A DNA stretch of 64,000 nt from NCBI RefSeq assembly GCF_003096075.1, contig NZ_CP015449.1, positions 1,488,001 through 1,552,000 on the forward strand, in the 5' to 3' direction. Source of the DNA: Dietzia lutea. GTDB taxonomy: Bacteria > Actinomycetota > Actinomycetes > Mycobacteriales > Mycobacteriaceae. Position 1 is the stretch's first letter. Each line of letters opens with the position of its first letter. The position numbers and the translations under genes are program-made. Below are positions 1,013 to 48,542 of the stretch, one piece after another. The notes under the pieces were generated by a model. The model ran no database searches. It saw nothing but the letters and a program-made list of their open reading frames with translations, and was not told where the DNA came from.

Positions 1013-1717
1013 TTAACCGTGGCGGCGCACGACGTCGCCCAGGTCCGCGCGCTCGGCGCGGAACGTGTTGGCCGGGTGGTTCTCGTCCGGGTAGCCGAAC
1101 GCGATCCCGCACACGATGAGCCGGTCGTCCGGGATCGACAGGTGCTCGCGGACCGCGTCCGAGTACAGGGCGATCGCGGCCTGCGCGCACGTCGCCACGC
1201 CCAGAGAGGTGGCCGCGGCCAGGAACGTCGACACGTAGCCGCCGCAGTCGACCGCTCCGTAGGTGCCCAGCCCCGCGTCCGAGGTGATGACCGCGACGTG
1301 GGGGGCGCCGAAGAAGCGGTAGTTCTCCAGCATCTGGCGCAGTCGCGCCTCCTGGTCCGACCGCTCGATGCCCAGCGCGGTGTAGAGGCCGTAGCCACTG
1401 GCCCGCCGACGGTCTCCGTAGACGCCGTCGTACCGCTCGGGCGCCGGGAAGTCCGAGCGCATGTCGTTGGCCAGCACGTGTTCGGTGAGGTGCTTGCTGA
1501 ACGCGGCCGTCGCGTCCCCGGTCACGAGGTCGACCTGCCAGGCCTGCGAGTTGCACCACGACGCCGTGCGCTGGGCCATCCGCAGGATCTGCTCGATCGT
1601 CTCCTCCGGCACCGGCTCCGAGGTGAACCCGCGGCAGCTGTAGCGGTCGTCGAGGATCCGCTCGAGCGTGGCGGCGGCGTCGAGTGTGGCCGGGGCGATT
1701 GAGGCGGAGTCGGTCAT
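1013..1717 (-). CDS. Nitroreductase family protein
   Basis: This 234-residue protein belongs to the FMN-dependent nitroreductase superfamily. An N-terminal RYSCRGF motif (about 28-34) matches the phosphate-binding RxSxR region. An ASWCNSQAWQV segment (about 52-62) lines the flavin pocket, and the C-terminal ICGIAFGYPDENHPANTF (about 202-219) is the usual closing GYP segment. Family members reduce nitroaromatics, quinones or enones with NAD(P)H; the physiological substrate here is unknown. A GGAGG sequence lies just upstream of the ATG and supports the start. The gene converges with the small membrane-protein gene. The upstream side is a long intergenic region that includes a structured repeat. 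Confidence 0.88.
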   Translation of the reverse strand: MTDSASIAPATLDAAATLERILDDRYSCRGFTSEPVPEETIEQILRMAQRTASWCNSQAWQVDLVTGDATAAFSKHLTEHVLANDMRSDFPAPERYDGVYGDRRRASGYGLYTALGIERSDQEARLRQMLENYRFFGAPHVAVITSDAGLGTYGAVDCGGYVSTFLAAATSLGVATCAQAAIALYSDAVREHLSIPDDRLIVCGIAFGYPDENHPANTFRAERADLGDVVRRHG

Positions 1718-2161
1718 AGGTCCTCCAGGGGGGCTCCGGGGCAGTGTGATCCCAGTCTCCCACGACGCCTCGGCCGGCGGTGCGAGCGGCCAGCCGGCGT
1801 GGACGGCCCGGTTTGGGCCCTCCGACAGTCCGCCGACAGCCAGGCTTGGCCCGCCGACGTTCTGCCCCTCGGATCGTCATCTGCCCTAGGAACTCCTGGG
1901 GCAACTCGCAACCCGAGGGGCAGAACGCCGGCGGCATCGGCTGGATGTCCACGCTGGTGGGACTTTCGCTCGTCGTGGGCGCGACTCGTGAGGTTCCGGC
2001 TCGCCCGGCCGGAGCTCGTCCACTCGCCGCCCCGCCCGCGGTGATCAGGCAGGTCACTCGGCTGTCCGCACGCAGTCACAGGTGCCGCCGCGATCCACAG
2101 GAGAGCGAGTCGAGCACCGGGATGAGCCGGAACCGGCCCGATGAGCACCGAGGATCTGGCC
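1718..2161. other. Intergenic region with a structured repeat, no credible gene
   Basis: This roughly 440-bp stretch separates the divergent nitroreductase and AbiEi/DUF559-like genes. Open frames here are short or antisense and lack convincing ribosome-binding sites or protein features. The notable content is a 70-nt nested inverted repeat in the middle (1858-1927). The part next to the downstream gene must hold its promoter, but I see no clear -10/-35 pair. Confidence 0.6.
1858..1927. repeat. 70-nt nested-hairpin element, copy A
   Basis: A perfect 15-bp outer inverted repeat (1858-1872 with 1913-1927) encloses a second inner stem (1882-1890 with 1895-1903; one U-G pair if transcribed). The same arrangement recurs, without gaps and with 52 of 70 identical positions, at 3132-3201 on the other side of the AbiEi/DUF559-like gene. 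Two outer-stem positions differ between copies by compensatory changes (T-A to A-T and T-A to C-G). That argues the fold itself is conserved. Confidence 0.85.
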
Positions 2162-3091
2162 ATGGCTACTTTCGATGACCTGCGAGCACTTCTCCACACG
2201 ACTGAGCAGTTGATGGCGGCCGGCTTCAGCACCCAGTCGCTCGGTCGAGCAGTCGCCTCGGGCGATCTGATCCGGCTGCGGCCCGGCTTCTACGTCGAGC
2301 GGTCCACGCGAGAGCTCGGGCGAGAGGAGCGGCACCTGCTCATGGTGCTGGCGGCGGACCGCGCCCTCGGGTGCCCGGTGTTCACGCACTGGTCGGCAGC
2401 ACTCGTCCTCGGGTTGCCGGGCTGGGATCTGCCACTCGGGACCGTGTCGTTGTCCCGCGTGGGGCACGCCCAGAGATCCCGTACCACCAGACTGACCAGG
2501 CATGACGTGACCCCGCTGGCGGAAGACGACATCGACGTGGTCGACGGACTTCGCGTGACCCGCCCAGAACGCACCATCGTGGACGTGGCCAGGACGTGCG
2601 CAGTACCGGCGAGCGTGGCGGTCGCAGACGCAGCCTTCAAGGCGGAGGCGGTCACCGCGGCCTCAGTGGACGACGCGCTGAGCCGCGCGGCCGGTAGGTC
2701 CGGCGTCAAACGCGCGCGGGCCGCGCTGGCCCGAGTCGACGCCCGCAGCGAGAGCGTCGCGGAGACCCGCAGCCGCCTGATCTTCGAGGACTACGGTCTC
2801 CCCGAGCCTCAGACACAGGTCGACATCTTCGATGCCCACGGCCACTTCGTCGCTCGCGTGGACTTCCTCTGGCCGGAGCTCGGTCTGATCGGCGAATGCG
2901 ACGGCTTCGGCAAGTACCTCGATGGCGCGGACGCGGCAGAGGCCCGGCGCCGACTGGGGGTGGAGAAGGATCGCGATGCCGCGCTCATGGCTCTGGGCTA
3001 CCGGGTGCTCCACTGGCGCTGGGCGGATCTCGACAGGCCCCGGCTACTGGCGCAGCGCCTTCGGTGCGTGATGTACCCGGCCGTCGCCTGA
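2162..3091 (+). CDS. AbiEi-type N-terminal domain with DUF559/Vsr-like C-terminal domain protein
   Basis: This 309-residue protein starts with a winged-helix domain like those of AbiEi antitoxin-domain proteins (AAGFSTQSLGRAVASGDLIRLRPGFYV, about 17-43). The central part resembles the AbiEi-4-like region (THWSAALVLGLP, PERTIVDVART). The C-terminal ~100 residues look like a DUF559 restriction-endonuclease-fold domain: E in SRLIFEDYG, D in ARVDFLW, ECDGFGKY, and a final EKDRDAALMALGYRVLHWRW segment. No AbiEii-type nucleotidyltransferase toxin is adjacent, so it is an orphan of unknown function. The ATG at 2162 was preferred because GAGG lies 9 nt upstream; 2141 is an alternative in-frame ATG. 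The gene is bracketed by two copies of a nested hairpin repeat. Confidence 0.8.
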   Translation: MATFDDLRALLHTTEQLMAAGFSTQSLGRAVASGDLIRLRPGFYVERSTRELGREERHLLMVLAADRALGCPVFTHWSAALVLGLPGWDLPLGTVSLSRVGHAQRSRTTRLTRHDVTPLAEDDIDVVDGLRVTRPERTIVDVARTCAVPASVAVADAAFKAEAVTAASVDDALSRAAGRSGVKRARAALARVDARSESVAETRSRLIFEDYGLPEPQTQVDIFDAHGHFVARVDFLWPELGLIGECDGFGKYLDGADAAEARRRLGVEKDRDAALMALGYRVLHWRWADLDRPRLLAQRLRCVMYPAVA

Positions 3092-3131
3092 TTCCGGCAG
3101 CTGACCGTCTCACGATTCGCCCCGCGAACGT

Positions 3132-3201
3132 CGATCCGCCCTCCAGTTATCGATCTGCCCTAGGAACTCCGAGGGCAAATCGTCATCCGAGGGGCGGATC
3201 G
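3132..3201. repeat. 70-nt nested-hairpin element, copy B
   Basis: The outer arms (3132-3141 with 3192-3201) are perfectly complementary over 10 bp. The inner stem pairs 3156-3161 with 3172-3177, then continues past one mismatch by two G-C pairs. It has the same length, orientation and nesting as copy A at 1858-1927, and shares an identical 18-nt core (ATCTGCCCTAGGAACTCC). It begins 40 nt after the stop codon of the AbiEi/DUF559-like gene. Confidence 0.85.
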
Positions 3202-3239
3202 CAATCCGAGGGGCGGATCATCAATCGAAGGGCGAATCG
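3184..3239. repeat. Three imperfect tandem copies of an 18-bp unit
   Basis: The right arm of hairpin copy B (CATCCGAGGGGCGGATCG, 3184-3201) is repeated at 3203-3220 and, more degenerate, at 3223-3239. Each unit keeps an ATC..GGGCG.ATC core. They may be partial duplications of the element's right arm, giving alternative pairing partners for the left arm. Confidence 0.75.
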
Positions 3240-3397
3240 CCGTCCCGAGGCTGCGCGGGCACTTGGAGGCTGCGCGGCGCGCTCGGTAGGCTCCGAGCGC
3301 CCTTGGTAGGCGCCGCGGCGCGCTCGGTCGGCCCCACGGGACACGGCGAGGCACCAGCCGGGCTCTGCGAGAGAGGCGTGGACCGGCGCCGCGCGGT

Positions 3398-3409
3398 TAT
3401 CCTCGGGCC
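3398..3409 (+). promoter_or_regulatory. Likely leaderless promoter of the S4-domain gene
   Basis: A -10-like TATCCT (3398-3403) lies six bases before the ATG, and no ribosome-binding site is present. The arrangement matches a leaderless transcript. Confidence 0.45.
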
Positions 3410-3775
3410 ATGGGTGTGCGGGTGGACGCGTGGACGTGGTCGGTGCGGCTGTTCCCGTCGCGGACCAAGGCTGCGGCCGCCTGTCGGGGTGGCCACGTCA
3501 AGGTCAACGGCGAGGCGGTGCAGCCGTCGAAGAACGTCGTGCCCGGCGACCGGGTCCAGGTGACGGGCGCGCTCGGCCGGATCCGCATCCTCGAGGTGGT
3601 CGAGACGGTGAGTAAGCGGGTCGGCGCCCCGGTGGCCGCGACGTGCTACATCGACCACTCGCCCCCGCCGCCGCCCAAGGAGGTCCTGGCCTCGCAGCCG
3701 CGGCGGGACCGCGGCGCGGGCCGACCCACTAAGCGCGAACGGCGCGAGACCGACCGGCTGCTGGGCCGCGGCTGA
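3410..3775 (+). CDS. S4-domain RNA-binding protein (Hsp15-like)
   Basis: This 121-residue protein begins with a canonical S4 RNA-binding domain: VDAWTWSVRLFPSRTKAAAAC (about 4-24) leads into GGHVKVNGEAVQPSKNVVPGDRV. The central part continues as in Hsp15/YrfH-like proteins. The C-terminus is basic and Arg-rich (RRDRGAGRPTKRERRETDR), as expected for contact with nucleic acid. Hsp15 homologues bind 50S subunits with stalled nascent chains; that role is inferred from the family, not shown here. The gene has its own probable leaderless start and converges with treY. Confidence 0.9.
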   Translation: MGVRVDAWTWSVRLFPSRTKAAAACRGGHVKVNGEAVQPSKNVVPGDRVQVTGALGRIRILEVVETVSKRVGAPVAATCYIDHSPPPPPKEVLASQPRRDRGAGRPTKRERRETDRLLGRG

Positions 3776-48490: not shown

Positions 48491-48542
48491 GACATGCCCC
48501 ACCGCCCCGACCTCGCGGGAGGACGGGGCGGTGGGGCATGTC
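48491..48542. terminator. Strong bidirectional terminator
   Basis: A perfect 19-bp inverted repeat (48491-48509 with 48524-48542) closes a 14-nt loop between the convergent helicase and Hsp20 genes. The stem is far longer than most in the window. No U-run follows, but the symmetric placement suits termination from both sides. Confidence 0.8.

What the first reader, a model, noticed from the sequence alone, without database searches (positions are those of the whole stretch)
1858..3201. Two co-oriented 70-nt nested hairpins bracket an AbiEi/DUF559-like gene
Elements at 1858-1927 and 3132-3201 have identical length, orientation and stem-in-stem architecture. They align without gaps at 52 of 70 positions. 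Two outer-stem base pairs change in a compensatory way between copies (T-A to A-T at positions 3/68, T-A to C-G at 6/65), so structure appears selected. They flank a single gene with a nuclease-like domain, giving a 1.34-kb unit. This recalls REP/RAYT or MITE-like arrangements, where palindromes are substrates of a nearby protein, but here the protein is AbiEi/DUF559-like. That pairing is inference and may be undescribed.
Basis: partly seen in the sequence, partly recalled or inferred. Interest (0 to 1): 0.8.

Follow-up and report, generated by a model that had tools for sequence, protein, structure and literature searches.

The report
Nuclease gene bracketed by cognate palindromes
A likely DNA-cutting-enzyme gene sits between two folded-back DNA repeats that change together with it and, in this genus, are also scattered around the genome, which looks like an undescribed repeat-keeping system.

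Summary
Two 70-nt nested palindromes (1858-1927, 3132-3201) bracket a 316-aa gene joining an AbiEi-like DNA-binding region to a Vsr/homing-endonuclease-like nuclease fold. It is not a local oddity. In Dietzia (27 of 47 genes) and across Actinobacteria (37 of 80 loci) such genes have strong ~70-nt palindromes beside them, built from a short motif repeated at 19-20 bp. Palindrome sequence differs between loci, yet the two copies of one locus match each other best in 39 of 44 loci: they change in concert. In Dietzia gene-less copies are dispersed, mainly in genomes holding the cognate gene, with exceptions, often between convergent genes, with covarying stems. Empty sites and a gene-less remnant exist. 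The genes are mostly vertically inherited. Best reading: a system that behaves like REPIN/RAYT but uses an unrelated enzyme, closest in fold to homing endonucleases. Binding, cutting and copying are inferred. Dispersal is shown only in Dietzia; 400 kb of one other genome had no dispersed copy. Eight aimed paper searches found no description.

The parts
1851..1934 (.).
2162..3091 (+). AbiEi-nuclease gene; ORF opens at 2141, but the Met at residue 8 (2162) is shared by 78 of 80 rows and is the likelier start
2171..2320 (+). Winged-helix (AbiEi_4) part, about residues 11-60
   Evidence: boundaries approximate
2321..2740 (+). AbiEi middle region, about residues 61-200, nucleotidyltransferase-like fold
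2747..3088 (+). Nuclease domain, residues 203-316, with E208, D241, E252, D254, K258
3132..3201 (.). Downstream nested palindrome (type A); inverted arms can be drawn out to 3114-3219
3191..3217 (+). Further tandem half-unit 19 bp after the one at 3172
   Evidence: family D2
3210..3236 (+). Possible further, decayed half-unit
   Evidence: read by eye; weak

Best explanation
A chromosomal unit of about 1.2-1.3 kb: one gene between two cognate ~70-nt palindromes and, in Dietzia, a set of gene-less palindromes of the same sequence type elsewhere in the genome. SHOWN by comparison: the association; the 19-20 bp motif spacing; locus-specific sequence with concerted change of the two copies; dispersed cognate copies; covarying stems; empty and differently occupied sites; a nuclease fold with conserved acidic residues. 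INFERRED: the AbiEi-like part binds the motif array; the nuclease nicks or cuts in or beside the palindrome (as duplex, cruciform or single-strand hairpin); repair from another copy homogenises the pair, now and then seeds a new intergenic copy, and rarely moves or replaces the unit. It works like REPIN/RAYT with an unrelated, homing-endonuclease-like enzyme.
Against: No binding, cutting or movement was observed. At the strict threshold 20 of 47 Dietzia and 43 of 80 named loci show no palindrome on either side. G005 and G009 hold many type D copies with no context-2 gene found; G013 and G014 hold the gene with 2-3 matches; four genomes with a context-1-clade gene (G001, G002, G003, G019) have 0-2 type B matches and G007 has 4 without one. 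No dispersed copy in 400 kb of G149. Two of five covariation measures are within reach of shuffles, 55 and 65 of 500. Copies within a genome are only slightly more alike than between genomes. A RAYT elsewhere in Dietzia was not searched for.
Confidence: 0.55

Rival explanations
1. Operator model: the palindromes are binding sites by which the AbiEi-like protein regulates its own gene and perhaps others; the two copies stay alike because both follow one DNA-binding specificity, not because they are copied.
For: AbiEi antitoxins are DNA-binding autoregulators (recalled; Pfam calls the family a transcriptional regulator). Motif arrays with 19-20 bp spacing suit a multimeric binder. DNA-binding parts change faster than the nuclease.
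Against: A matching palindrome also lies downstream of the gene; dispersed copies lie mostly between convergent genes and 0 of 25 between divergent ones; the nuclease residues are conserved; stems covary at variable columns.
Confidence: 0.2
2. Three-prime-end model: the palindromes are bidirectional terminators or transcript stabilisers kept between convergent genes, and the link with the gene is by descent only.
For: 14 of 25 type D copies lie between convergent genes (against 7 of 23 window gaps, Fisher p 0.015). Many copies are old and shared between species. Type D ends in AAA...TTT.
Against: No terminator-like site in 1700-3420; types A and B lack a T tract (by eye); one palindrome lies upstream of the gene; sequence is private to each locus. 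Absence of strand bias (G.T 172, A.C 172) does not decide, since both strands may be transcribed.
Confidence: 0.1
3. Whole-unit transposon: gene plus terminal palindromes move together and the gene-less copies are remnants.
For: Compact unit, median 1281 nt in 21 Dietzia and 1172 nt in 18 other loci. G003 keeps one decayed palindrome without gene at the context-0 site. Related clades occur in different contexts.
Against: Clade and context mostly agree; no near-identical second unit in the own genome; no relative in viral contigs, phages or plasmids. Target-site duplications were not examined.
Confidence: 0.1

Closest known systems
REPIN/RAYT (REP-associated tyrosine transposase, TnpA-REP)
   Same: Gene flanked by hairpin-forming palindromes; non-autonomous palindromes dispersed outside genes and commoner where the gene is present; gene vertically inherited and not seen on plasmids (PMC3116915 abstract; PMC8049555 passages)
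   Different: The enzyme is AbiEi plus a PD-(D/E)XK-like nuclease, not a HUH tyrosine transposase; palindromes are ~70 nt with a motif four times at 19-20 bp; GTAG occurs in type D only (by eye)
EDxHD homing endonucleases (I-Bth0305I)
   Different: Here the DNA-binding part is AbiEi-like, the gene is free-standing between palindromes, and homing was not tested
Vsr mismatch endonuclease and DUF559
   Different: Fused to an AbiEi region; three ordinary DUF559 genes of the genome lack strong palindromes
AbiE type IV toxin-antitoxin (AbiEi antitoxin)
   Different: Neighbours are nitroreductase and S4 genes, not an AbiEii toxin; carries a nuclease

Membership tests
REP/RAYT | Protein is a HUH (Y1) tyrosine transposase | tested here: not met
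   Pfam finds AbiEi and DUF559 families in 30 members and no transposase; fold matches Vsr and homing endonuclease
REP/RAYT | Palindromes dispersed mainly outside genes | tested here: met
   Dietzia only; 20 of 25 placed outside genes, 4 called inside, 1 with no right neighbour
REP/RAYT | Inverted doublets forming hairpins | tested here: met
REP/RAYT | GTAG or CGTC tag | tested here: inconclusive
   GTAG in type D, none seen by eye in types A, B and C; not scanned
REP/RAYT | Gene vertically inherited and not on plasmids | tested here: met
   tree and contexts; no plasmid match at E 1e-15
REP/RAYT | Protein cuts its own palindrome | not testable with these tools
   needs biochemistry
EDxHD homing endonuclease | Catalytic-domain fold | tested here: met
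   [not shown]
EDxHD homing endonuclease | EDxHD residues in the active site | tested here: inconclusive
   E208, D241, E252, D254, K258 conserved; not superposed residue by residue
EDxHD homing endonuclease | Copies itself into empty sites | not testable with these tools
   empty sites exist
AbiE type IV toxin-antitoxin | AbiEii toxin gene next to it | tested here: not met
   window neighbours are nitroreductase and S4; other loci not checked
DUF559 (PF04480) | Match above Pfam cut-off | tested here: inconclusive
   not in the window protein; in 8 of 30 members at E 0.01
Insertion sequence | Several near-identical copies in a genome | tested here: not met
   own genome only: best paralogue pieces 54 and 62% identical
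Insertion sequence | Target-site duplication | not tested
   not examined

The most novel reading that the evidence does not exclude
A phylum-wide, undescribed class of intragenomic repeat system in Actinobacteria: a homing-endonuclease-like enzyme with a fast-changing AbiEi DNA-binding part that keeps converting and spreading its own palindromes, so that each protein and its palindromes form a private pair. It would be an independent invention of the REPIN/RAYT way of life, with break-and-repair conversion in place of HUH transposition.
Probability: 0.35. Interest if true: 0.93.

Novelty: new variant of a known kind. Interest (0 to 1): 0.82.

Why it matters
REPIN/RAYT is the textbook case of a nuclease gene living with a population of palindromes. 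A second system with an unrelated enzyme would show that this way of life arose more than once and would give a bacterial model for concerted evolution of repeats. It would also give a role to a very common gene family (119 of 150 sampled genomes of the order have a relative at E 1e-30) now labelled antitoxin or unknown, and offer many natural pairs of DNA-binding domain and long target.

Tried and rejected
RNA family: no Rfam match at gathering scores in 7 sources. Strand bias of stem mismatches: none (G.T 172, A.C 172), which disfavours an RNA made from the gene strand only. Type IV toxin-antitoxin: no AbiEii neighbour in the window. Carriage by plasmid or phage: nothing found (the plasmid search used one protein and E 1e-15). 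Intrinsic terminator: none in 1700-3420. PDB by sequence: no match up to E 1. Plain Foldseek against the PDB was never accepted; the viral structure library and a covariance model were not tried. NCBIfam gave nothing useful.

Papers: eight searches aimed at prior description and two for background. None of the listed titles or abstract starts described this association; the library holds open papers only, so earlier description is not excluded. Seen: PMC3116915 abstract and outline; passages of PMC8049555, PMC8266576 and PMC3943268; PMC3733652 searched for six actinobacterial names, 0 hits (93); other papers as search listings only.

Weak points: one search gave 54 matches, 52 places; five (L133, L135, L161, L172, L173) were dropped as split or partial, leaving 47. 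Of the 20 of 47 without a strict palindrome, 14 have a weaker one by my eye, not by rule. The 29 order-level loci overlap the named set (L255 shows the same palindromes as L185, L274 as L198). A1 holds 30 of the 47 proteins. A2 was gathered with a peptide pattern over residues 250-259, so their invariance is partly built in; E208, D241, E275 and R278 lie outside it. Matches often count both strands of one palindrome and were not reduced to sites. In one search G013 was scored as holding the context-2 gene because its partial locus has the same palindromes as G014. The gene caller is a rough one of mine.

Full report
OBSERVATION. The two elements are as described: 52 of 70 positions identical, both named pairs changed on both sides, stem-in-stem folds far below shuffles. 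Direct orientation carries little weight. Its genus is taken as Dietzia because several same-genus contigs match named Dietzia records in length and match position.

ASSOCIATION. In 23 genus genomes 21 have relatives, 54 matches. In the own genome the relatives at 1041, 2678 and 621 kb are also flanked, each by palindromes of its own sequence. Over 47 intact Dietzia genes, strict palindromes number 19 in 18.1 kb upstream, 21 in 18.6 kb downstream, 0 in 45.0 kb of gene and 2 in 297 kb farther off; up 18 of 43, down 21 of 46, both 12 of 42, either 27 of 47. Over 80 named loci of many actinobacterial genera, 8 of them Dietzia: up 26, down 26, both 15, either 37; 5 in 423 kb farther off and 5 in 75.7 kb of gene. 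Over 29 order-level loci: up 6, down 9, both 3, either 12. Intergenic control: 1 in 43.9 kb. Three other DUF559 genes of the own genome have none at score 16; one has a match of 13.8 downstream.

ARCHITECTURE. Within an arm a short motif recurs 19-20 bp away. A 9-bp repeat (one mismatch allowed) at lag 19 is in 38 of 89 Dietzia flanks against 38 of 685 controls, and in 66 of 142 other flanks against 58 of 937; at lag 20 in 31 of 89 against 32 of 685, and 42 of 142 against 45 of 937. Other lags are raised less: up to about 5-fold in Dietzia and 3-fold elsewhere. In the order-level set lag 19 is in 29 of 57 and lag 20 in 27 of 57, against 4 and 10 of 114 intergenic controls. Median palindrome length is 70 nt.

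CONCERTED CHANGE. In 44 loci with both palindromes at a looser threshold the two copies score 43.4 against each other and 9.0 against other loci; the true partner is best in 39 and in the top three in 43 of 44. For proteins 50-75% identical, copies score 16.7 (up-up) and 17.7 (down-down) between loci. So the pair stays alike while its sequence drifts between species.

DISPERSED COPIES. Type B query from the own genome: 15, 22, 10, 17, 6 and 4 matches in G000, G004, G005, G009, G006 and G007, 0-2 in the other 17. Type D query from G019: 31, 29, 20, 28, 24, 30 and 13 in G000, G004, G005, G008, G009, G019 and G020, 0-3 in the other 16. The tie to the cognate gene has p 7e-4 and 4e-4, kinship ignored; exceptions are listed under evidence against. 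Of the 9 type B places of the own genome examined, 8 have a counterpart in G004 or G009. All 40 type D copies examined fit one 72-nt frame; at 11 variable pair columns 259 of 440 cells pair against 213.6 in shuffles, highest of 2000 being 244 (orthologous copies included). MAFFT aligned 25 of them (12 from G000, 13 from G019) without gaps: 84.4% of cells pair; 43 cells change on both sides against 28.1 in shuffles; 0 of 500 shuffles reach these or the covariation score, while the counts of pairs and of pair types are reached by 55 and 65. Of those 25, 14 lie between convergent genes, 6 tandem, 0 divergent, 4 called inside a gene, 1 with one neighbour; window gaps of 80 bp or more are 7 convergent, 10 tandem, 6 divergent. 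Within-genome identity exceeds between-genome identity by 0.02 (3 of 2000 permutations). In 400 kb of G149 the unit's palindrome had no further copy.

SITES. Twelve Dietzia loci share the unit's chromosomal context. Between nitroreductase and S4 genes (named), G020, G016, G007 and G017 have no such gene; G003 has no gene but a decayed palindrome read by eye. G001 (contig edge), G010 and G018 (something else between the two genes) and G022 (no nitroreductase found) say nothing clear. At one convergent intergenic site 19 genomes could be read: G019 and G008 hold type D; G000, G004 and G009 type B; G002 its own B-like form; G016, G007, G020 and G001 other forms by eye; nine show no palindrome (for G010 and G018 only about 80 bp were available). 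At 3369 kb G004 and G009 carry a type A array that the own genome lacks.

INHERITANCE. In a tree of 47 proteins clade and context mostly agree; the context-0 protein of G002 falls in the context-1 clade (100/99) and the two context-7 proteins inside a clade of context-0 proteins (96/89). No relative in viral contigs (51 pattern matches, none confirmed), phages (E 1e-3) or plasmids (E 1e-15).

MECHANISM. Best reading: a resident nuclease recognises its palindromes by its AbiEi part and by cutting and repair keeps the pair alike and slowly disperses it. Each biochemical step is inference. Analogies: RAYTs are single-copy, vertically inherited and not seen on plasmids, and REPINs are commoner in genomes with the RAYT (PMC8049555 passages); I-Bth0305I dimerises on a target of nearly 60 bp (PMC3943268 passages). 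It is not a REP/RAYT member, since the enzyme differs. Operator, terminator and whole-unit transposon models remain as rivals.

Noticed in passing
window 48491-48542: A palindrome with 24-nt arms shortly after a stop codon, looks like an ordinary terminator-type hairpin.
   Followed up: partly
L018; G000:C1:1041187-1041979: The own genome's type B gene is split between two frames, while its hairpins remain; the G004 relative is one open frame.
   Followed up: no
L017 3262-3345 and 3446-3515; L168; L169; L350: Type A and type B gene-less palindromes often lie next to each other in the same intergenic gap.
   Followed up: partly
window 3247-3350: GC-rich degenerate direct repeats downstream of palindrome 2 (D3 and D9), perhaps decayed units.
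   Followed up: no
L365-L404: The type D motif contains GTAG, the tag of one REP superfamily; perhaps chance. A RAYT in Dietzia was not searched for.
   Followed up: no
[not shown]
   Followed up: no
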